30,392 nucleotides of DNA from a virus. Shown in pieces: positions 7,733 through 28,149 of this stretch. The translations under genes and the position numbers were made by a program. Numbering within the stretch: the first letter of the stretch is position 1; each line of letters opens with the position of its first letter. Location of the stretch: the IMG/VR virus record IMGVR_UViG_3300022907_000066, positions 1 through 30,392 of that record, one strand, 5' to 3'. The notes beneath the pieces were generated by a model. The model was not told the DNA's origin, did no database searches, and saw nothing but the letters and a program-made list of their open reading frames with translations.

Positions 7733-8334
7733 GGTTCACCGGTTTCATTCAACAGTTTACCTGACCTATCTGAGGTTAGTTTCATTATAGTTTCATACAT
7801 TACAGGCGCAAAGAACGGCGAGTTGCCGAAGTGTTTTGGCGCTAGACCATAGTAATTTTTACTCTTCTGGGTAGAGAATGATTTCATCATGTGATAGCTA
7901 TATGCCTTATCCGCCGCGTAACCACCTAGAATGAAACCATCGGTTCTTGCACTTGGGTGTAGCACTGGAGATAACATCCAAACAATTTTAGAGTTCTCTG
8001 TAACCTCTATGTATTGTGCGATATAATATGATAGTTGTACATTGTTAAAGAATGCACGGTTCCAATGTTCTAGTTGTACGTTTTCTTGTACGATGTCATT
8101 AGGCGACCCCCCACCATTTTGATTGAACACCACTACATCATAATCCTTGTCAATCTTTGGTATGATATCGCCTGTTGATACATGATGCCAGTTAACAGGT
8201 ATAACTCGGTCAGCTTCAATATCCGTATTGCCTGTAATAACGTGGACCTCATCACCGTATTCTTTTGCTGTTGTCGCCAACTGTGCGCCAAATTTAGAAC
8301 CACCGCCGACAATTAGAATTTTAGACTGTGCCAT
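7723..8334 (-). CDS. Short-chain dehydrogenase/reductase-like protein
   Basis: The protein (203 residues) begins KILIVGGGSKFGAQLA, a Rossmann nucleotide-binding loop (Gly at 10-12 and 16). Asn85 and Asn98 fall in the region where SDRs have a structural Asn. Ser122 (MLSP), Tyr139 and Lys143 (YAADK) match the Ser-Tyr-x-x-x-Lys catalytic set. It is shorter than the usual ~250-residue enzyme and seems to lack part of the C-terminal substrate loop. It probably acts on a small sugar or carbonyl substrate with NAD(P)H, but the substrate is not visible. It overlaps the radical SAM gene upstream by 14 bases, so the two are likely translated together. AAGGAA is well placed before its ATG. Confidence 0.7.
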   Translation of the reverse strand: MAQSKILIVGGGSKFGAQLATTAKEYGDEVHVITGNTDIEADRVIPVNWHHVSTGDIIPKIDKDYDVVVFNQNGGGSPNDIVQENVQLEHWNRAFFNNVQLSYYIAQYIEVTENSKIVWMLSPVLHPSARTDGFILGGYAADKAYSYHMMKSFSTQKSKNYYGLAPKHFGNSPFFAPVMYETIMKLTSDRSGKLLNETGEPWS

Positions 8335-9436
8335 GAATTTTTCCTTCGTTTTGATATATTTGTTCCATTACCGTTTGCTTGTCTGTTGACACCCCACAGT
8401 TCTGCCAGCAGACAACACAGGATTTAGACTCCCAGCTATCATGCACCCATTTATAAGGGTCGTCTGCGAGTATTTCTTTAAGAGATCTGTCATGCAGAGA
8501 CAATCGCTTGTCCTTGAATATGTCAATCATCTGTGCTTTCGGGAACAATTGATTGAATCTTGGGTGCATACTCAGATGTCCGAAATGCACACAAGGGTAC
8601 ACTGTGCCGTCAGCGGCTATGCGTATCTCAACACCATTACGATGTGAGAAGCATTTGATGTCTCCTGGTGTGTCTGCATACCGTGTTTCTACCTTTTCTT
8701 TGATTGTAATGTATTGAACATCTTCTGCCTTATAATTAGGAGGGGTTGCAGGGTATGTATTTTGTATGTAGCTCTCATCAATCGGTTCTAATTCATACAG
8801 CACATTGTAGTCGGCATCCTTGACTTTCATGTTGCCTTTCTCAAATCCCTTAGGATATTTCACAGTCACATCTAGGAAGCCCATCTCCCACGCTAGATAC
8901 CTTACGTCCGCTACCTGATGCTCGTTGTGCTTGAATATCAAAAAGTCCCAGTATGCATTGCCGCCGTTGTCGATAAACGCTCCAGCATTTGCCATTACCT
9001 TATCCCACTTGACATTTCTGCGGTAAAGATGATTTGTATCCTCTAGCCCGTCGATGGAGAATATCATCTTGCGCTGCTCTCGGTGTGAGAATAGTTTTCC
9101 TAGTTCGCCCCACCAATTGGAATTGCGCATACCCCCGTTGGTATTAAGATGCACTGAGGCTTCAGGGTTGTGTGTCAGCACATAATCTAGTATCAGCAGC
9201 AGATCTGGGTTTGTTCCAGCATCACCATAATCACCAGAGCAGGTCCAGTTGTCAATGCGGGCACAAAAGTCAGCAGGAAACCAATCCTTGAATTGATCAA
9301 AGGTTATGTATGTAGGTTTGAGTTGTTTGTTGACAACGCTGGACATGTCCTCATATCGAGGACACCAAGCACATATAGAATTGCAGAGGCTGGACAGTTC
9401 TATATTCACAAAGTTTACATCATCATAATTCCACAT
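8321..9436 (-). CDS. Radical SAM enzyme with C-terminal SPASM/twitch-like cysteines
   Basis: This 371-residue protein carries CNSICAWC near the N-terminus (Cys18, Cys22, Cys25), the CxxxCxxC site for the SAM-binding iron-sulfur cluster. After a TIM-barrel-like middle (LNTNGG, IFSIDG), the C-terminal part holds more cysteines. They include IKCFSHRNG, GTVYPCVHFG and CVVCWQNCG, a SPASM or twitch arrangement for auxiliary clusters. Proteins of this type often modify peptides or, in some cases, sugars or nucleotides. A dehydrogenase-like gene and an unknown gene follow in the same unit, and a second radical SAM gene lies at 10740-11717. No precursor peptide is obvious. It is intact and full length. 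Confidence 0.85.
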   Translation of the reverse strand: MWNYDDVNFVNIELSSLCNSICAWCPRYEDMSSVVNKQLKPTYITFDQFKDWFPADFCARIDNWTCSGDYGDAGTNPDLLLILDYVLTHNPEASVHLNTNGGMRNSNWWGELGKLFSHREQRKMIFSIDGLEDTNHLYRRNVKWDKVMANAGAFIDNGGNAYWDFLIFKHNEHQVADVRYLAWEMGFLDVTVKYPKGFEKGNMKVKDADYNVLYELEPIDESYIQNTYPATPPNYKAEDVQYITIKEKVETRYADTPGDIKCFSHRNGVEIRIAADGTVYPCVHFGHLSMHPRFNQLFPKAQMIDIFKDKRLSLHDRSLKEILADDPYKWVHDSWESKSCVVCWQNCGVSTDKQTVMEQIYQNEGKIHGTV

Positions 9437-10739: not shown

Positions 10740-11717
10740 CTATAGATTATGTACAATTTTCCCTGATTGTATCTCAGATGCTAGATCATTTTTAAACTGT
10801 GTCACAAGTTCCTGATACTCAGCGTGATCTGGGTGCAGTAAGTTGTCAACCTTCTGACGCTTGTATAGTGCAGGATCTTGCGACCAATGCTCTACATTAA
10901 AAAAGTTGTACTTAACATTGTGATTGGTCAGTGTGCGTTCCACTAGGTCATAACATTCTCGTATCTCTCTGAAATTCAAATCATGCACACAGTACCATAT
11001 TGTAAGATTGCCGACGGACTTTTCATTCATGAATTCTAGGTTGCGCATGAGCAAGTCGAAGTTGCCTCCCTTGCGCACTACCTTGTATGTGTCATAACGT
11101 GCAGCATCCATAGATATGTTTAGGTCTAGGATAAAATCTTCTGCTAAATGTTTGATCTCTTCCCACTTCTGCATCAGCAACAGCCCATTGGTATGCATTC
11201 GTATCTGCATCAGTTGTGGGTAAGTTTCTCTGCTAATGTTCTTTAGCATCTCAAATGATTTTTTGCTGTAAAGAGGGTCGCCCGAAGCTGTAGTTGCTAG
11301 AAACTTTATCTTGTCAGAAAACTCCTGAACCTCGTCGTAGGAGTCTCTCTGCTGTTTGCTCTCTAATATGAAATCGTTTCTACATGTAGGGCATGCTAGA
11401 TTGCAAACATCATCCTCGCACATTTCTACTGCGCTAGGATATTCTTCAATTTGCAGTGCTTCTTTAGGATAGAAGACTCGAGGAGAACCACCCTCCCTGT
11501 ATGTTTTCAGGTAAGGGCAGTTGTCGCCACAGTAACTATATGAGCCGTCGAGTACGCTCTCCCTGATTGCATTGATCTCAGGGCTATTGAAACGCTCAAC
11601 TATTGTGTCGCCTGACAGCTTAGGGTGTGTCCCCCATGTAGGATTGCATATCACTTGCTCTCCTGTTTGTAGAAACACTGCCCACTTGAAAGGCATTGCA
11701 CAATATTTTTCGCTCAT
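10740..11717 (-). CDS. Radical SAM enzyme with N-terminal SPASM-like domain
   Basis: This 325-residue protein has the radical SAM cysteine motif CNLACPTC at Cys105, Cys109 and Cys112, unusually far from the N-terminus. Before it lies a domain with CAMPFKW (Cys6), VICNP (Cys24), a FNSPEINAIRES segment and YCGDNC (Cys63, Cys67). This is the layout of a SPASM cluster domain, normally found at the C-terminus. The order SPASM then radical SAM is known in some bacterial families but is uncommon. The substrate is unknown. The small gene at 11729-11929 lies directly upstream and could be a partner; this is only inference. The start is supported by GAGG four to five bases upstream. Confidence 0.85.
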   Translation of the reverse strand: MSEKYCAMPFKWAVFLQTGEQVICNPTWGTHPKLSGDTIVERFNSPEINAIRESVLDGSYSYCGDNCPYLKTYREGGSPRVFYPKEALQIEEYPSAVEMCEDDVCNLACPTCRNDFILESKQQRDSYDEVQEFSDKIKFLATTASGDPLYSKKSFEMLKNISRETYPQLMQIRMHTNGLLLMQKWEEIKHLAEDFILDLNISMDAARYDTYKVVRKGGNFDLLMRNLEFMNEKSVGNLTIWYCVHDLNFREIRECYDLVERTLTNHNVKYNFFNVEHWSQDPALYKRQKVDNLLHPDHAEYQELVTQFKNDLASEIQSGKIVHNL

Positions 11718-22541: not shown

Positions 22542-22808
22542 TTAACAATTCCAACGTCTGCGGGCAGCCTTGCCCCGCTCACCTGTCCATCCTCTAGATC
22601 TAGCGCAAAATGATTTACGCCTACCAGCAGCCTTGCTGCCTTTCTTCAGTTTGCTGGGGGGTGTAGTAACAGCAGTCTGTAGATTGCCCCCTGTTCTTCG
22701 GTTCTCAGCATCTACGCCTTTCTGTGTCAGACCAGCGCCATCTTCAGTAGGTCGCTTGTGACCAGACTTAATGCCTTCTTCTACTATGTATTCGATAAAT
22801 GAAATCAT
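22542..22808 (-). CDS. Small basic protein, DUF6321-like
   Basis: This 88-residue protein has the sequence GLTQKGVDAENRRTGGNLQT, then PSKLKKGSKAAGRRKSFCAR, and ends in ARRRWNC. From memory this matches DUF6321, a small basic family in marine phages and bacteria that ends in WNC. No function is known. The arginine and lysine content suggests contact with DNA or RNA. Its start overlaps the stop of the kinase-containing gene by four bases (ATGA), so translation is coupled. The first 12 residues are hydrophobic-acidic (MISFIEYIVEEG), a start that I also associate with several phage proteins. Confidence 0.65.
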   Translation of the reverse strand: MISFIEYIVEEGIKSGHKRPTEDGAGLTQKGVDAENRRTGGNLQTAVTTPPSKLKKGSKAAGRRKSFCARSRGWTGERGKAARRRWNC

Positions 22809-25201
22809 CTTTTCTTGACCTTAAACTTCTTAGCTTTGTACTTACTCGCAGTACCGCCTTTCGTTATCTTAAATTTCTTAGCTTTTTGAGACTTTTTATT
22901 GCCTTTACTTTTTAAACGGCCAATTTCTGCTTTGCGAACAGTAGGAATCATTCGCTGTGCCAATTTAGTAACAATTGGTGCGAATCTTACTAACATTTTT
23001 TCAAGTCTCGCCTTCTCAGCGGGAGGCATTGTAGATGTATCTCTACCTCTTGCAAGTCGCTTCTTCATCATGTTTCTAGCACCGCGAGATGCCTTTCTTT
23101 TGATACGAGCTGGGTCAGATGCCATGCCTCCGCGTCGGCGTCGAGCAACAGATAGTTTTTGCTTGTTTCTTCTAGCGTTAAATCTGCGCTTCATTCTGCC
23201 TTGAATAGAAAGTTCTTCGGTAACATTAATGTCATCATGCACATCAACTTCTGTGTAGTCGTCCTCTTCATCGTACACGCCCAGATCAACAAGATCGTCA
23301 TAATCCATGTTGTCTATTTCATCATACAAATCATCGATGTCTTCTTGCTTTAATCCAGTCGTTTCTATTTCATCCATATAGGACATGAAATCTTGTTCTT
23401 CTTTGACTGAAATCGGAGTCTTAATTGGCTTGATGTCTTCGGTCTTCTTCTTCTCACCGGGTGTCATCTTTTTATAGTATGCAGTAGCTTCTGGTGTGCC
23501 CCATTCGTACTTATATTCTTCTGCAACCATCTTAGCAAGTGTTCGTGCATCAACCTTAGTTGTAAGCATATCTTTGGTTACTTGCAGTGCGTAGTATTCT
23601 GGGCTGTGCCTGAGAACATTGCCTTTCTTTTTCTTCTCAGCATCCATCATCTTCTTTAGCATCTTTGCTGCTTGCTTGTACTGCATCTTGTACACTGTCC
23701 TAGCGAGAGGATCAAGCATCCATCTAGGTGCTTCTGAAATATCAGACTTAGTTCCGATTTCTTTCGTTACAGGATTAATCTTAGCAGCGAAGCCCTTTTT
23801 CTTTTCTCTCTTTTTACTCAACCGTCTCTGTTCAAGTGACTTTGCAGGCTTCAGTTTTGGTAGAGTATATCCTTCTTTTTGGCTTTGCAATTTTGCTGCA
23901 ATAGCCATTTGTGTTCTTTTCTGTTTGGACTTGCCTTTGAATTGCGGTGCGTCAGACTGTCTAAAGTCCTTGATAACGTCACCCATAGACATGTCTTTTA
24001 CTTTTTCGTACATGATTGTGCCGTCTTCTTTGACACAGTTAGGAACGATTCGGTCCCCTTTCCAGCATGCTTCTTCAACATCTGTCTTGACCATGATAGG
24101 CTTGCCACCTTTGCCTTTACGATCTGCAACAGGATCTTTCCTGCGCTTTCGTCTAGCAGAGGTTGCTCGGTCATCTTTGTCCATGCTGTGTGCTTTTGAT
24201 CTAGGCATGCACTTAGGCTTACCTTCTCCAGGCTCTCTTGCACAATCACCTTTAATTTCTCCGTCGGTGCCAACTCTTACCCAGTCACCTTTCTTACCTT
24301 TTCCGAACCACTTTCTTAAATCTTCTTTGAGTTTCATCTTTGCGGTTAAACGTCTTTGTATAGAAGTAGGAAGTTCTTTGAAGTGAAAAAGTTTTTCGCT
24401 TGAGTCAGTGTGCTTTTCGCCAGTCATTACTTGACCTTTGTGTGCGTGTTGCAGTCCTGTCCATTCTTTGCCGTCTTTAGTGTAGTGACCTACAGATTTC
24501 CAGGAATGTTCTTCACCTTCTTTCAAGCCGCGCTGCTTCTTTTGGGATTGAATCCATCTCTTCGCTGCTGGCTTACTAGGAGGGGTGCGAATAAACTGAC
24601 CTATCTTTCGATATACTGAAAGAGTAGCACCTTGGATATTTCCTGCGTTTGAGTTATCAACAACGTGAAAATTATTGTCAAACATATTTTGAAACTTACC
24701 GATGTTCTTTTGAACATCTTTCCACATACTTTCAACTTGCTTTTCAGGAAGAGTTCTTTCTCTTTTCTTATTGCGTGATTGTGCAGTGTCTAGGTCAGTA
24801 TTGACAAAAATCATCGCAACTTCATACCCTAGTTTCTTTAGCGCAGTCGCTTGCTTTTGAATCTTGCCAAAGTCTTTACCAGTACCATCAATGACTAGAC
24901 CTAATCGTCCATTCATGTAGCCTACTTGCTTGTTACCAGTAATCGCTTTTGCTTTTCCTCGGATTGCTTGTCCCTTATCAGAGAATATATCCTTGGGGGT
25001 TGCTTCTAGTCCCGCTTTCTTCAACAGATGCTCAAACGTATCATCAGAGTTTACTAATTTCAACCCGAATGAAGTCAGAGCCGTCTGCCCTACGATAAAT
25101 GATTTACCAGAACCTGGTCCGCCAGCTAGAAAGACTGCCTTGAAGATGCCAGGATCATTTATACCTTCTGCCAACTGTACTGTGTCTTTAAATTTTTGCA
25201 T
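22805..25201 (-). CDS. Large modular protein: N-terminal P-loop kinase, basic C-terminus
   Basis: This 798-residue protein begins with a P-loop kinase domain. AVFLAGGPGSGKSF is the Walker A loop (27-34), LVNSDD follows at about 50, and VDNSNAGN lies near the domain end. The fold resembles zeta-toxin or polynucleotide kinase types. Next come a linker, a basic cysteine-containing region (WFGKGKKGDWVRVG, then RRKRRKDPVADRKGKGGKP) and an acidic region near residues 640-670. A long Arg/Lys-rich tail begins at LSIQGRMKRRFNARRN and ends with two KAKKFK repeats. The tail resembles proteins that I recall labelled capsid/scaffold in marine T4-like phages. It combines a catalytic and a nucleic-acid- or capsid-binding part; its exact role is unknown. 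The ATG is only five bases from a late box. Confidence 0.75.
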   Translation of the reverse strand: MQKFKDTVQLAEGINDPGIFKAVFLAGGPGSGKSFIVGQTALTSFGLKLVNSDDTFEHLLKKAGLEATPKDIFSDKGQAIRGKAKAITGNKQVGYMNGRLGLVIDGTGKDFGKIQKQATALKKLGYEVAMIFVNTDLDTAQSRNKKRERTLPEKQVESMWKDVQKNIGKFQNMFDNNFHVVDNSNAGNIQGATLSVYRKIGQFIRTPPSKPAAKRWIQSQKKQRGLKEGEEHSWKSVGHYTKDGKEWTGLQHAHKGQVMTGEKHTDSSEKLFHFKELPTSIQRRLTAKMKLKEDLRKWFGKGKKGDWVRVGTDGEIKGDCAREPGEGKPKCMPRSKAHSMDKDDRATSARRKRRKDPVADRKGKGGKPIMVKTDVEEACWKGDRIVPNCVKEDGTIMYEKVKDMSMGDVIKDFRQSDAPQFKGKSKQKRTQMAIAAKLQSQKEGYTLPKLKPAKSLEQRRLSKKREKKKGFAAKINPVTKEIGTKSDISEAPRWMLDPLARTVYKMQYKQAAKMLKKMMDAEKKKKGNVLRHSPEYYALQVTKDMLTTKVDARTLAKMVAEEYKYEWGTPEATAYYKKMTPGEKKKTEDIKPIKTPISVKEEQDFMSYMDEIETTGLKQEDIDDLYDEIDNMDYDDLVDLGVYDEEDDYTEVDVHDDINVTEELSIQGRMKRRFNARRNKQKLSVARRRRGGMASDPARIKRKASRGARNMMKKRLARGRDTSTMPPAEKARLEKMLVRFAPIVTKLAQRMIPTVRKAEIGRLKSKGNKKSQKAKKFKITKGGTASKYKAKKFKVKKR

Positions 25202-25206
25202 ACAGC

Positions 25207-25214
25207 TATTTATA
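25207..25214 (-). promoter_or_regulatory. T4-type late box TATAAATA, five bases before the kinase-gene ATG
   Basis: A perfect TATAAATA on the minus strand is separated by exactly five bases from the ATG at 25199-25201. By the T4 convention the box spans -13 to -6, which places +1 on the A of the ATG. The TAA within the box (25210-25212) is the stop of the lysozyme gene. Confidence 0.65.
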
Positions 25215-25656
25215 CATTTTCGAGTCTGCTCATTAAACGTTCAGCACGATTAGTTACTTGCTTGTGCCAGTTGCTATCTCTACCTTCTACAGCAGCAGTA
25301 GCCCAGTCGCCCTCAGCAATAGCGGCATTCATTTTCTTGAATTGGCTGAGTCTTGGACGACCCATGTTAAACATCATGTTAACCAGGATCTGTTGGACCT
25401 CATCTGGATACTCTCCAAAGCTCCCTTCTCCGTATAGATGTTCACACTCGGAGATGGCAGTGTCAAGGTCTCGTTGAAAACACGCCCTAACTCTTTCTTC
25501 GTCAATTGGAGTTCCAACTGGCCTTCCGAATTCCTCGTCACTTTCTGTGATAAGATGACCGACTCCAAAGGTTGGATAGCCGAGGTGGTCGTTATAGATG
25601 ACATATTCTACACCTTCGTCAATTTTTAGTTGTTCAAATACTGCGTCACGGTTCAT
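25210..25656 (-). CDS. T4-type lysozyme (endolysin, GH24)
   Basis: This 148-residue protein is similar in length to T4 lysozyme (164). Near the N-terminus LKIDEGVEYVIYNDHLGYPTF carries the catalytic Glu, Asp and Thr in the same spacing as Glu11, Asp20 and Thr26 of T4 lysozyme. GVGHLIT follows, as in the family. The C-terminal part with NMMFNMGRPRLSQFKKM and NWHKQVTNRAERL also fits. It cuts the bond between N-acetylmuramic acid and N-acetylglucosamine in peptidoglycan. It has no signal peptide or membrane segment, so a holin would be needed, and none is obvious here. It could act at lysis or as a virion enzyme. It overlaps the NMNAT-like gene by four bases. Confidence 0.9.
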   Translation of the reverse strand: MNRDAVFEQLKIDEGVEYVIYNDHLGYPTFGVGHLITESDEEFGRPVGTPIDEERVRACFQRDLDTAISECEHLYGEGSFGEYPDEVQQILVNMMFNMGRPRLSQFKKMNAAIAEGDWATAAVEGRDSNWHKQVTNRAERLMSRLENV

Positions 25657-26261
25657 AGGTGCTCCTGTAAAAATTTGCTGAATGACTGATATCTAGAGTC
25701 GCCTTCTTTTAATTGCATTCCCTGCCGTACAGCGTTGAACATTTTCTTTGCCGCTGCGTCACGCGCTCTGGGATTAAGGCCCTTCTTAAAATTTGTATAA
25801 TCGTTTTCTGATGCGTATTGACGCATCTTAGTCCCACTGATTCCCGCCACACCCTCAGCATCAGGATCTCTTTCTCCTGCTGAAACTACTTTAACCTCTT
25901 TGAAGTTGAAGTCTTTGCCGTTGTACCTATCTATGAGTCTCTGGAACTCTAACACTCTGTCAGAGCCAGCGATCATTACAACATGGGTGTAGCCTTCCTG
26001 ATCCATCTTCTTCAAGTGTGCCATAAAATGAGGTTGCGCCTTAGAGGACGCCTCGAATTTTACGTTTGTATGTATTGACTTTAAGTAGTCGATCTTCTGT
26101 TGTGCAGTGAGAGGATTCTTGTGCTTGTCTTGTGAGTGACTTACTATGACTCTATGGTCAGCGCGGCGTTTCTGTGCCTCACTCACAACCTTATCAACAA
26201 GTTTGCTGTGTCCTGTCGTGGGCGGGTTCAGTCGCCCGAATGCGAATACTATCTGCTTCAT
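25653..26261 (-). CDS. NMN-adenylyltransferase-like nucleotidyltransferase
   Basis: This 202-residue protein starts IVFAFGRLNPPTTGH, where TTGH is the (H/T)xGH motif of the nucleotidyltransferase alpha/beta phosphodiesterase superfamily. GISGTKMR later matches the ISxTxxR motif that binds the ATP phosphates. MIAGSDRVLEF in the middle is also typical. The best-known members join an adenylyl or cytidylyl group to NMN or a phospho-substrate; the NadM/NMNAT type would make NAD+. A C-terminal extension of about 45 residues is basic. It overlaps both neighbours by four bases, so it is made together with the lysozyme and the KxDG protein. The substrate is inferred. Confidence 0.8.
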   Translation of the reverse strand: MKQIVFAFGRLNPPTTGHSKLVDKVVSEAQKRRADHRVIVSHSQDKHKNPLTAQQKIDYLKSIHTNVKFEASSKAQPHFMAHLKKMDQEGYTHVVMIAGSDRVLEFQRLIDRYNGKDFNFKEVKVVSAGERDPDAEGVAGISGTKMRQYASENDYTNFKKGLNPRARDAAAKKMFNAVRQGMQLKEGDSRYQSFSKFLQEHL

Positions 26262-27511
26262 CTATCCCATGCCTTAATTGCAGTAAAGTTGTTAAAACTA
26301 AATTCCATACGATCAACAAGTTTGACGGCTGAACCTGAGATTCTATCGATAGCGACATACCCTTCAGGAGCAGTTACCTTGAACCCATTTGCAGTTCTGA
26401 TAAACGTACCTGCAAGTTGTTTTACCTGATTCAATTTATTTGTGATCATTTCCTTTGCTGCAACAACCGCTATTTGAAATTCAGTCACTGCAACAAGTAA
26501 CGGCTGTAGCCGCTTCAATTCGTTCAGCATTGCATCTTTTTTCTGTGTAAGCACATCTTTAGATGATTGCTGCTTTAGCTTTCCGATCTCAGAATCATAC
26601 TTAGTAGCTACCCATTTCAGATAGTCACTTGCGTGTGATTTAGAATTTGTAACTTGCTGTTGTCCGCGCACTTTAGAGTTCTGATACGTCTTATAACTTG
26701 CACCTATCATTTTACCCTGCATGCTGGCTTGCAGTGAATTAAAGTTCTTTAATTGTGCTGCGTTCACACCGCGCAGTTTAGTTCCTATGGTAGAAATCAA
26801 TGCAGTAATCGCAGTGGTCTCCGCCTTAGTAAACGTAGCAGTACCTGACTCATCTTTATAAGTCGCATCATCCATCCATACAGATGAAGACTTCCTAAGA
26901 CCTTTGATGTTGGCACCAAAGGATGCTGTCATATCCTGCAGCGAGTTTCCCGAATACGATGTGTGCCATACGATACCTATCTTGCTTTGTTTAATTTTTA
27001 CGTCCAGTGGCGTCCCTACTGGGACTGCATAGACAATTGTATTAGGTTGAAAAGTCGTGTATCGTTGTCCATCTATCGTGTCAGATTCCAAGTCGCTTGA
27101 AGTAAACATCAAGTCGCCTTGCAATACGTTTTTGATCCCTAGCTTGCTAAACTCAGCTAATGCTATTTTAAACTTAGGCTTGAGTGAAACGGGTAGCTTA
27201 GGATCAGAGTCTATCTCCTTGTTGCTTTTATATAGCAGTGGAGTCTTATTGAATACAGATTTCTTAGCGACAAAAAATTTGCCGTCGGAAGGATCTGTAC
27301 CAGCAAATATTGCGGGTGCGCCATCCCATTTTACTGTCATGTTGACAGAGGATCGGGAAGATCCTGCAAGCATGTCGCGCAGTGAACGTAAAAAGTTTAC
27401 AGCCGATCTTGCACCAACGATACCAAAGTTTAGGATATCATCTTCTAGGTGCTCTAGGTGTAAATTTTTGCCTTGGGCATCTTCGGTGATGTATGTACTT
27501 AGCGATTTCAT
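26258..27511 (-). CDS. DUF6267-like protein with ligase-type KxDG motif
   Basis: This 417-residue protein has the start NLHLEHLEDDILNFG, then NFLRSLRDMLAG, which matches my memory of DUF6267 in marine T4-like phages. Residues 59-66 (TVKWDGAP, Lys61) look like motif I (KxDG) of DNA/RNA ligases and capping enzymes. FFVAKKSVFNK follows at 79-89, LQGDLMF at 130-136 (an E/D-containing strand) and IGIVWHTSYSG later. This order resembles a covalent nucleotidyltransferase, though I cannot locate motif V with certainty. The C-terminal half is helical and basic. The start lies five bases from a late box. The role is unknown; a nucleic-acid-joining or adenylylating activity is an inference. Confidence 0.7.
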   Translation of the reverse strand: MKSLSTYITEDAQGKNLHLEHLEDDILNFGIVGARSAVNFLRSLRDMLAGSSRSSVNMTVKWDGAPAIFAGTDPSDGKFFVAKKSVFNKTPLLYKSNKEIDSDPKLPVSLKPKFKIALAEFSKLGIKNVLQGDLMFTSSDLESDTIDGQRYTTFQPNTIVYAVPVGTPLDVKIKQSKIGIVWHTSYSGNSLQDMTASFGANIKGLRKSSSVWMDDATYKDESGTATFTKAETTAITALISTIGTKLRGVNAAQLKNFNSLQASMQGKMIGASYKTYQNSKVRGQQQVTNSKSHASDYLKWVATKYDSEIGKLKQQSSKDVLTQKKDAMLNELKRLQPLLVAVTEFQIAVVAAKEMITNKLNQVKQLAGTFIRTANGFKVTAPEGYVAIDRISGSAVKLVDRMEFSFNNFTAIKAWDR

Positions 27512-27516
27512 GTTAT

Positions 27517-27524
27517 TATTTATA
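27517..27524 (-). promoter_or_regulatory. T4-type late box TATAAATA, five bases before the KxDG-gene ATG
   Basis: A perfect TATAAATA on the minus strand lies exactly five bases before the ATG at 27509-27511, the same geometry as at 25207-25214. Its TAA (27520-27522) is the stop codon of the SGNH hydrolase gene. Confidence 0.65.
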
Positions 27525-28149
27525 ACGATCTCAGTTTTGCAATTATCATATCTGCAATGATTTTATGCCCCAATTCATTAGGATGATTGTCACCTGGTAT
27601 GAAGTAATCGTGCTGTACATTGTTCATTGCATTTTTGTCAGCTACCCTTAGATTGTCTTCCCAAACTTCAGTGCCCAATAGAAGGTGTGTCAAACTTTTT
27701 TTGCGATCCAAGAATACTGAATCAGGTATGTCAAAGAAAGGTGCAATCTCTAGGTTGCCATAGTTATGTGCCAAGACAAGTTTCATTCCTTTGTCTTTAG
27801 CTAGATTGATCAGAGTATAGATGAACAGTGAGTGATGATAGACGTACCATTCTCTATAGCTGTGTATTTCGAGAATCGAAAGTTGTTCAGGGCAGTCGTT
27901 AAAAATGCTTGAGGTTTGATAATCGCGTTGAATATTGTACCATCGAGTATCGGGGGGAATGATTACTACAAGTGAATCACCTTCTTTAAATTCGGGGCTT
28001 TGTTTTAATACATCTGCTGTTACATGACCCATTGAAGATGCAGAAATACCTTTGTTGATGACTTCACCCTCAAAATGATCCGAGAATCTTTTTTCCTTTT
28101 CTTTTAGACCGTATCCTGCAGCCCAGCTATCCCCGAATACCCATATCAT
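27520..28149 (-). CDS. SGNH/GDSL hydrolase, catalytically complete
   Basis: This 209-residue protein starts MIWVFGDSWAAGYG, block I of the SGNH family with Ser8 as nucleophile. INKGISASS supplies the block II Gly, AHNYG the block III Asn, and PGDNHPNELGH the block V Asp and His. It is therefore likely to be an active esterase or O-deacetylase, unlike the protein at 709-1455. It lies next to a glycosyltransferase and a sugar dehydrogenase, so deacylation of a host or virion glycan is a reasonable guess. The start overlaps the coiled-coil gene by four bases (ATGA). The stop is contained in the late box for the next gene. Confidence 0.8.
   Translation of the reverse strand: MIWVFGDSWAAGYGLKEKEKRFSDHFEGEVINKGISASSMGHVTADVLKQSPEFKEGDSLVVIIPPDTRWYNIQRDYQTSSIFNDCPEQLSILEIHSYREWYVYHHSLFIYTLINLAKDKGMKLVLAHNYGNLEIAPFFDIPDSVFLDRKKSLTHLLLGTEVWEDNLRVADKNAMNNVQHDYFIPGDNHPNELGHKIIADMIIAKLRSL

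What the first reader, a model, noticed from the sequence alone, without database searches (positions are those of the whole stretch)
22805..27511. Kinase, NMNAT-like enzyme and ligase-like KxDG protein in one late cluster
22805-25201 has a P-loop kinase domain, 25653-26261 the (H/T)xGH and ISxTxxR motifs, and 26258-27511 a KWDGAP motif followed by GDL and other strands resembling covalent nucleotidyltransferases. Kinase, adenylyltransferase and ligase-type activities together are reminiscent of RNA repair or NAD-dependent joining. In T4 such repair counters host tRNA cleavage, but the domain architectures here differ. The late boxes suggest action at packaging or in the virion.
Basis: partly seen in the sequence, partly recalled or inferred. 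Interest (0 to 1): 0.6.

Follow-up and report, generated by a model that had tools for sequence, protein, structure and literature searches.

The report
Tagged ligase-like enzymes packed in phage heads
A marine T4-like phage carries a late gene cluster with a previously unrecognised ligase-type enzyme and an NAD-synthase-like partner, and these and their neighbours share a ten-residue label like the one phage T4 uses to load proteins into its head, which suggests a ready-made enzyme kit delivered with the viral DNA.

Summary
The KxDG protein (26258-27511, Pfam DUF6267, no known function) is very probably a divergent covalent nucleotidyltransferase of the ligase/capping superfamily. Lys61 and candidate motifs III, IV and V are invariant in 81 relatives, and for a compact family member (27-28% identical) the 50 best PDB fold matches are all ligases or capping enzymes, although none is individually significant. 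Its partner is the NMNAT-like protein: adjacent in most relatives, and fused to it in cyanophage S-PM2. The kinase is an optional member, with no evidence of being a polynucleotide kinase.

The proteins share a tag, F-x-x-[FY]-[LIV]-x-E: N-terminal on DUF6267 and DUF6321, a looser form on the kinase, C-terminal on the NMNAT. It matches the T4 internal-protein capsid-targeting sequence MKTYQEFIAE, occurs on 23 sequence-unrelated families around DUF6267 genes, and is otherwise rare. NMNAT homologues are mass-spectrometry-proven virion proteins, and T4-type late boxes precede DUF6267 and the kinase.

Best reading: enzymes loaded into the head and delivered with the DNA. Substrate (RNA, DNA or NAD-linked) is undetermined; T4-type tRNA repair is not shown. 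DUF6267 itself has not been seen in a virion proteome that I could read.

The parts
26258..27511 (-). DUF6267 protein, ligase/capping-like covalent nucleotidyltransferase (predicted)
   Evidence: Pfam PF19782 E=7e-98; AF2 model pLDDT 87.6, pTM 0.83; fold searches
27482..27511 (-). N-terminal tag MKSLSTYITE; predicted removal after E10
   Evidence: E10 in 74 of 81 relatives; positional pattern M-x-x-[FL]-x-x-[FY]-[LI]-x-E; residues 1-18 have pLDDT below 50; T4 IPII/IPIII start MKTYQEFIAE
27320..27331 (-). Motif I K61-W-D-G (predicted adenylated lysine)
   Evidence: K61, D63, G64 invariant in 81/81 and across the 27-30% identical short subfamily
27110..27121 (-). Motif III-like Q131-G-D-L (Asp in place of the usual Glu)
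   Evidence: Q131, G132, D133 invariant 81/81
26345..26365 (-). Motif IV-like E383-GYVAID
   Evidence: E383, G384 invariant; T4 Rnl1 has EGYVAV at its motif IV
26309..26326 (-). Motif V-like V396-K-L-V-D-R401
   Evidence: K397, R401 invariant
25653..26261 (-). NMNAT-like nucleotidyltransferase
   Evidence: CTP_transf_like above cut-off; 19 of 22 relatives hit NCBIfam TIGR00482 NMNAT at E<=0.1, best 1.8e-5
26208..26219 (-). (H/T)xGH motif, T15-T-G-H18
   Evidence: T15, G17, H18 invariant
25821..25841 (-). ISxTxxR motif, ISGTKMR
   Evidence: S142, K145, R147 invariant
25662..25682 (-). C-terminal tag FSKFLQE of the NMNAT-like protein
   Evidence: 19 of 19 unique C-termini of stand-alone relatives carry F..[FYL][LIV].[EDG]; 0 of 269 other C-termini
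25210..25656 (-). Lysozyme-like protein between NMNAT and kinase
   Evidence: Phage_lysozyme E=1.5e-8; PHROG 13211 baseplate hub/tail lysozyme E=5e-25
22805..25201 (-). P-loop kinase fused to a long basic C-terminal region
   Evidence: AAA_33 and Zeta_toxin above cut-off; middle matches PHROG 727, the family of S-SCSM1 gp029, annotated virion protein
24632..25168 (-). Kinase domain proper (about residues 12-190)
   Evidence: Walker A, N39-S-D41 and R131/R135/R137 (alignment numbering) invariant in 16 relatives
25166..25201 (-). N-terminal tag-like MQKFKDTVQLAE before the conserved (E)GxNDP (looser form)
   Evidence: Relatives: MEKTFKDFIPLEEGVNDP, MEFKDFISEGVNDP, MLTFDQFVNETELTEGVNDP
22542..22808 (-). 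DUF6321 protein with tag MISFIEYIVEE
   Evidence: PF19846 E=9e-10; tag present in relatives; the DUF6321 domain also ends S-SCSM1 virion protein gp029
27517..27524 (-). T4-type late promoter box TATAAATA before DUF6267
   Evidence: 7 in window vs 1.3 expected; also upstream in close relatives
25207..25214 (-). Late box TATAAATA before the kinase

Best explanation
The cluster encodes head-packaged enzymes. Late in infection DUF6267, the NMNAT-like protein and variable companions (kinase, DUF6321 and others) are made, and a short terminal tag F-x-x-[FY]-[LIV]-x-E, like the T4 capsid-targeting sequence, brings them into the prohead core. The T4-type prohead protease probably trims N-terminal tags after the Glu, and the enzymes enter the next host with the DNA. 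There DUF6267 acts as a covalent nucleotidyltransferase: Lys61 takes AMP from ATP or NAD and passes it on, most likely to a nucleic-acid 5' end for sealing. The NMNAT-like partner supplies or recycles the dinucleotide or prepares the substrate. Well supported by sequence and prediction: ligase-like fold, invariant candidate catalytic residues, portable tag, DUF6267-NMNAT linkage, late promoters. Inferred: packaging of this phage's proteins, cleavage, delivery, AMP transfer, and a nucleic-acid substrate.
For: Fold: all 50 best PDB matches of the compact DUF6267 model are DNA ligases, RNA or tRNA ligases or capping enzymes (model). For the window model, ligases recur among the top 50 PDB matches and an Atu_ph07 RNA ligase appears in BFVD at E=5e-3, probability 0.98. 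Catalytic residues. Partnership: NMNAT found near DUF6267 in 70/81, 79/80 and 47/80 loci, one 597-aa fusion in S-PM2, one PHROG profile covering both. Packaging: the cyanophage citidylyltransferase T4-GC190, encoded directly after DUF6267 in Syn1, is an S-SM1 virion protein by mass spectrometry (PMC3037559). The S-SCSM1 NMNAT is in the virion (PMC9602691), begins MKSFLQFLKE, and is the only N-tagged gene of 282. Tag: 23 unrelated families; enrichment; genome-wide rarity; C-terminal version 19/19; T4 parallel. Late boxes.
Against: No single PDB match is significant (best E=0.066, low TM-scores). Profile comparison to three phage RNA ligases failed, and a profile search of PDB sequences found none. 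DUF6267 has not been reported in a virion proteome that I could read; the short, untagged S-SCSM1 copy is annotated 'hypothetical', not 'virion'. Cyanophage DUF6267 proteins carry no tag. HTVC008M has only a shortened tag on DUF6267. The tag is not shown to target anything in these phages. The NMNAT tag is C-terminal here, unlike T4.
Confidence: 0.55

Rival explanations
1. RNA (tRNA) repair kit as in T4: the kinase heals 5' ends and DUF6267 seals host tRNA cut by anticodon nucleases; packaging would give protection before phage genes are expressed.
For: Ligase-like fold including T4 Rnl1 and Rnl2 among matches; motif IV EGYVA resembles T4 Rnl1; kinase family AAA_33; weak kinase-domain matches to L-seryl-tRNA(Sec) kinase.
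Against: Kinase absent from most loci; best profile matches are adenylate kinase and zeta toxin; no 3' phosphatase or 2H enzyme in the cluster; no RNA-ligase family match. The NMNAT partner is not explained.
Confidence: 0.2
2. DNA nick or end sealing of the incoming genome, with NMNAT regenerating NAD for an NAD-using ligase.
For: HTVC008M, Melnitz and Syn1 lack recognised ATP- or NAD-dependent DNA ligases; many of the top fold matches are DNA ligases; link to NMNAT.
Against: No detectable OB-fold domain after motif V (only about 16 residues follow); hosts provide LigA; DLP_6 has both an ATP-dependent DNA ligase and DUF6267; use of NAD untested.
Confidence: 0.2
3. NAD restoration against host NADase defences: kinase (as ribosylnicotinamide kinase) plus NMNAT make NAD, as NadR does in one protein; DUF6267 has an accessory role.
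For: NMNAT-type matches; NadR is a HIGH nucleotidyltransferase fused to a P-loop kinase and phages use NAD salvage (PMC9503650); kinase and NMNAT adjacent in HTVC008M.
Against: NMNAT matches are far below equivalog cut-offs; kinase usually absent; DUF6267 is the most constant partner.
Confidence: 0.2
4. The tag and proteins are structural or scaffolding, or the enzymes act during head assembly rather than after delivery; or the NMNAT-like enzyme makes NDP-sugars.
For: Long basic tails resemble internal head proteins; a HIGH-superfamily role in NDP-sugar synthesis has been suggested for cyanophages (PMC7824862); glycosyltransferase and sugar genes lie just upstream in the window.
Against: Invariant candidate catalytic residues in DUF6267, NMNAT and kinase argue for active enzymes; the virion location of NMNAT fits poorly with sugar metabolism.
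Confidence: 0.15

Closest known systems
T4 internal proteins IPII/IPIII with capsid-targeting sequence (CTS)
   Same: N-terminal decapeptide MKTYQEFIAE has the same pattern as the tags here; late expression; a prohead protease is present in the tagged or NMNAT-bearing cultured relatives checked (HTVC008M, S-SCSM1).
   Different: In T4 the CTS is described only on IPII and IPIII and not on other core proteins (PMC9958956). Here it is on 23 unrelated families including enzymes, and at the C-terminus of stand-alone NMNATs.
Covalent nucleotidyltransferase superfamily (T4 Rnl1/Rnl2, DNA ligases, capping enzymes)
   Same: KxDG lysine, motif III, IV and V candidates in order, predicted fold.
   Different: No detectable sequence similarity; Asp in motif III; roughly 45-residue conserved N-terminal helical part with HxEHxED; large helical insert between the motif IIIa region and motif IV; no visible C-terminal OB or RNA-ligase domain.
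Cyanophage NMNAT/cytidylyltransferase virion protein (T4-GC190; S-SCSM1 gp281)
   Same: Homologous protein (38% identity), same gene neighbourhood, virion mass spectrometry evidence (PMC3037559, PMC9602691).
   Different: Window protein is short with a C-terminal tag; S-SCSM1 has an N-terminal tag and additional regions.
NadR (NMNAT + ribosylnicotinamide kinase)
   Same: Combination of a HIGH nucleotidyltransferase and a P-loop kinase.
   Different: Separate genes, kinase closest to zeta toxin/AAA_33, kinase not constant, ligase-like protein added.

Membership tests
Covalent nucleotidyltransferase superfamily (ligases/capping) | Nucleophilic Lys in KxDG (motif I), invariant in the family | tested here: met
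   K61/D63/G64 81/81 and across a 27-30% identical subfamily
Covalent nucleotidyltransferase superfamily (ligases/capping) | Motifs III (acidic), IV (EG), V (K) in order | tested here: met
   D133 (Asp, not the usual Glu), E383-G384, K397 invariant; assignment by order and by resemblance to T4 Rnl1 EGYVAV, not by alignment
Covalent nucleotidyltransferase superfamily (ligases/capping) | Nucleotidyltransferase fold | tested here: inconclusive
   50/50 top PDB matches of the compact member, recurring in the window model, but none below E=0.05 individually
Covalent nucleotidyltransferase superfamily (ligases/capping) | Lysyl-AMP/GMP formation | not testable with these tools
   needs an assay
RNA ligase (Rnl1/Rnl2, PF09414) | Family sequence profile match | tested here: not met
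   Pfam scan gives only DUF6267; hhalign to three Atu_ph07 RNA ligases gives probability below 2%
NAD+-dependent DNA ligase | PF01653 adenylation domain | tested here: not met
   Pfam scan of the protein gives no PF01653; none in six cultured genomes of the group
T4-type capsid-targeting sequence | About ten N-terminal residues with the IPII/IPIII pattern ending in (L/I)xE | tested here: met
   DUF6267 and DUF6321 in the window; kinase only in looser form; NMNAT has it at the C-terminus
T4-type capsid-targeting sequence | Directs the protein into the head and is cut by the prohead protease | not testable with these tools
   indirect only: S-SCSM1 NMNAT with this tag is a virion protein
NMNAT (HIGH-superfamily adenylyltransferase) | (H/T)xGH and ISxTxxR motifs | tested here: met
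   invariant T15-x-G-H18 and S142..K145..R147 in 22 relatives
NMNAT (HIGH-superfamily adenylyltransferase) | Curated NMNAT equivalog score | tested here: not met
   17 bits vs 341; 14.7 vs 112; substrate therefore open
Polynucleotide kinase | Closest relatives are 5'-OH polynucleotide kinases | tested here: not met
   PDB profile hits: adenylate kinase, zeta toxin, L-seryl-tRNA kinase; no PNK

The most novel reading that the evidence does not exclude
Marine and other T4-like phages use a portable shipping tag, placed at either end of a protein, to load a variable kit of enzymes into the head. Its core is a new ligase family (DUF6267) working with an NMNAT-like enzyme on nucleic acid or NAD-linked substrates at the moment of DNA entry. 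The tag would let cargo be predicted from sequence alone.
Probability: 0.4. Interest if true: 0.8.

Novelty: new variant of a known kind. Interest (0 to 1): 0.63.

Why it matters
DUF6267 occurs in over 400 deposited phage records and in many more environmental contigs without any assigned function. A ligase-like identity plus an NMNAT partner gives it a directly testable chemistry. The tag on 23 unrelated families extends a T4 feature described so far for two small proteins to a general loading label, so that injected cargo of ocean phages could be read off genomes. It also offers a rationale for NMNAT-like proteins repeatedly turning up in cyanophage virion proteomes.

Tried and rejected
Sequence searches of PDB with DUF6267 (single sequence; profile), with NMNAT (single; profile) and with the whole kinase protein gave nothing meaningful; a kinase-domain profile worked. 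hhalign of DUF6267 against three phage RNA ligases was uninformative because those templates are single sequences. Attempts to gather RNA-ligase relatives in viral contigs found only the source phage. Structure search with the full window model was diluted by the helical insert, which led to modelling the compact subfamily. Rejected: the tag as an artefact of conserved DNA (synonymous codons differ); the tag as a common feature of all phage genes (0 of 235 non-virion S-SCSM1 genes, 1 of 440 cyanophage neighbours, only the DUF6267 gene with the tight form in all of DLP_6). Enrichment p-values are not used as probabilities, because related loci are not independent and the N-terminal test allows several start codons. 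In S-SCSM1 alone the tag-virion association is a single case (Fisher p=0.17). Supplementary proteome tables (S-SM1 Table S8, Atu_ph07 Table S5) could not be read, so whether DUF6267 (T4-GC71) and the Atu_ph07 kinase homologue gp053 are listed is unknown; gp053 lies inside a 46-gene cluster of which 29 products were detected.
Full report
WHAT IS THERE. The window is a fragment of a T4-like (Kyanoviridae-type) marine phage. Around the finding lie ribonucleotide reductase, thymidylate synthase, primase and a head-protein family gene. Near matches to known phages are absent at DNA level; the closest cultured relative by DUF6267 is Methylophilales phage Melnitz (64% identity). The three reported ORFs are real and correctly placed. 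Order on the minus strand: SGNH hydrolase-like, DUF6267, NMNAT-like, lysozyme-like, kinase, DUF6321, Asp/Arg-hydroxylase-like, then a long ORF and a head protein.

DUF6267 IS LIGASE-LIKE. Pfam knows the KxDG protein only as DUF6267 (E=7e-98). In 81 diverse relatives K61, D63, G64, Q131, G132, D133, N157, Y161, H183, T184, E383, G384, K397 and R401 are invariant. Read in order these fit motif I (KWDG), III (QGDL), a IIIa-like region, IV (EGYVAID) and V (VKLVDR) of ligases and capping enzymes; T4 Rnl1 has EGYVAV at motif IV. A compact subfamily of about 294 residues, 27-30% identical to the long form, keeps the main residues. AlphaFold2 models are confident (87.6 and 90.3 mean pLDDT). For the compact model all 50 listed PDB matches are DNA ligases I/III/IV, archaeal and NAD-dependent DNA ligases, T4 Rnl1 and Rnl2, editosome, Naegleria, archaeal and tRNA ligases, and capping enzymes. 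Each match is weak (best E=0.066), but no other fold appears. The window model shows the same superfamily diluted by other hits, and BFVD adds an Atu_ph07 RNA ligase at E=5e-3. Sequence methods do not reach this superfamily. Departures: Asp in motif III, a conserved N-terminal helical part (HxEHxED), a helical insert of about 180 residues, and no obvious C-terminal domain.

THE PARTNER IS THE NMNAT-LIKE PROTEIN. NMNAT was found in the locus in 70/81 close relatives, 79/80 cyanophage loci and 47/80 DLP_6-type loci, and never near the compact form; kinase in 21/81, 0/80 and 5/80 (flanks are finite, so these are lower bounds). In S-PM2 (LN828717) one 597-aa ORF holds both domains; the older record NC_006820 has it split between two ORFs. 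PHROG 455 covers both. The catalytic motifs of the NMNAT-like protein are invariant, but it scores far below NMNAT equivalog cut-offs, so the substrate is open.

THE KINASE. It has an AAA_33/zeta-toxin-type domain with invariant Walker A, N-S-D and arginines. Its best profile matches are adenylate kinase, zeta toxin and L-seryl-tRNA kinase. It is fused to regions shared with S-SCSM1 gp029, annotated as a virion protein. It should not be called a polynucleotide kinase on this evidence.

A SHARED TERMINAL TAG. DUF6267 in the non-cyano lineages begins M-x-x-F-x-x-[FY]-[LI]-x-E with free variation between the fixed positions. The window DUF6321 protein begins MISFIEYIVEE. Kinases begin with looser forms such as MEKTFKDFIPLEE|GVNDP. 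Stand-alone NMNATs carry the motif at the C-terminus (19 of 19 unique ends, 0 of 269 other C-termini), while long NMNATs lack it there and begin with related sequences such as MKKFSEIIEA. T4 IPII and IPIII in the same database begin MKTYQEFIAEA; [quoted passage not shown] PMC11690488; PMC3012670). After removing the tag, the 181 tagged ORFs near DUF6267 fall into 23 families without detectable similarity. Tagged neighbours number 25/513 and 59/493, against 4/3454 and 4/2897 internal methionines, and 1/440 in cyanophage loci. In whole genomes the tight form is rare: only the DUF6267 gene in DLP_6; in Melnitz the DUF6267 gene, its upstream neighbour, a RimK-type ATP-grasp gene, and one frame starting at a TTG.

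VIRION EVIDENCE. T4-GC190 citidylyltransferase is an S-SM1 virion protein (PMC3037559); in Syn1 it is encoded directly after DUF6267. In S-SCSM1 the syntenic block gp089, gp282, NMNAT gp281, gp280, gp279 and gp277 is annotated as virion proteins from mass spectrometry (PMC9602691). The NMNAT begins MKSFLQFLKEAAESG and is the only N-tagged gene of 282. DUF6267 itself has no such record that I could read, and the short untagged S-SCSM1 copy is not annotated as virion.

LATE EXPRESSION. TATAAATA is enriched in the window and lies 5 nt before the ATGs of DUF6267 and the kinase. Close relatives keep the box at similar or longer distance. If the box works as in T4, these two transcripts would start at about the ATG.

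INTERPRETATION. The simplest account joining these facts is a set of late, head-packaged enzymes delivered with DNA, with a DUF6267-NMNAT core. Ligase-like fold: about 0.85. Tag as packaging signal: about 0.7. Action on nucleic-acid ends: about 0.4. RNA repair as in T4 is one option among several.

Noticed in passing
L366:82-1131 (Melnitz-3, MZ577098.1): A RimK-like ATP-grasp protein starts MTQKFSQFITEEPKEQ, i.e. with the same tag, away from the DUF6267 cluster: another candidate packaged ligase-type enzyme.
   Followed up: partly
window 25653-26261 and L001-L080: The tag sits at the C-terminus of stand-alone NMNATs but at or near the N-terminus of long NMNATs: an apparent move of the label between protein ends.
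   Followed up: yes
window 25201 and 27511: TATAAATA ends 5 nt before the ATG in both genes, so T4-type late transcripts would begin at about the start codon (leaderless?).
   Followed up: partly
NC_006820.1 103037-104222 vs LN828717.1 93497-94678: The S-PM2 fusion gene is split into two ORFs in the older record but open in the newer one; the '390-aa cytidyltransferase' entry is probably a fragment of the fusion.
   Followed up: partly
L250:2407-3291 and L258-L337: A compact DUF6267 subfamily (about 294 aa) without tag and without NMNAT nearby, so the family also has a life outside the cluster.
   Followed up: partly
window 27520-28149: An SGNH-hydrolase-like gene replaces, in the window and a few close loci, the conserved gene that precedes DUF6267 in cultured relatives.
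   Followed up: no
window 8321-9436 and 10740-11717: Two radical-SAM proteins near ribonucleotide reductase, one with a weak SPASM-domain match.
   Followed up: no
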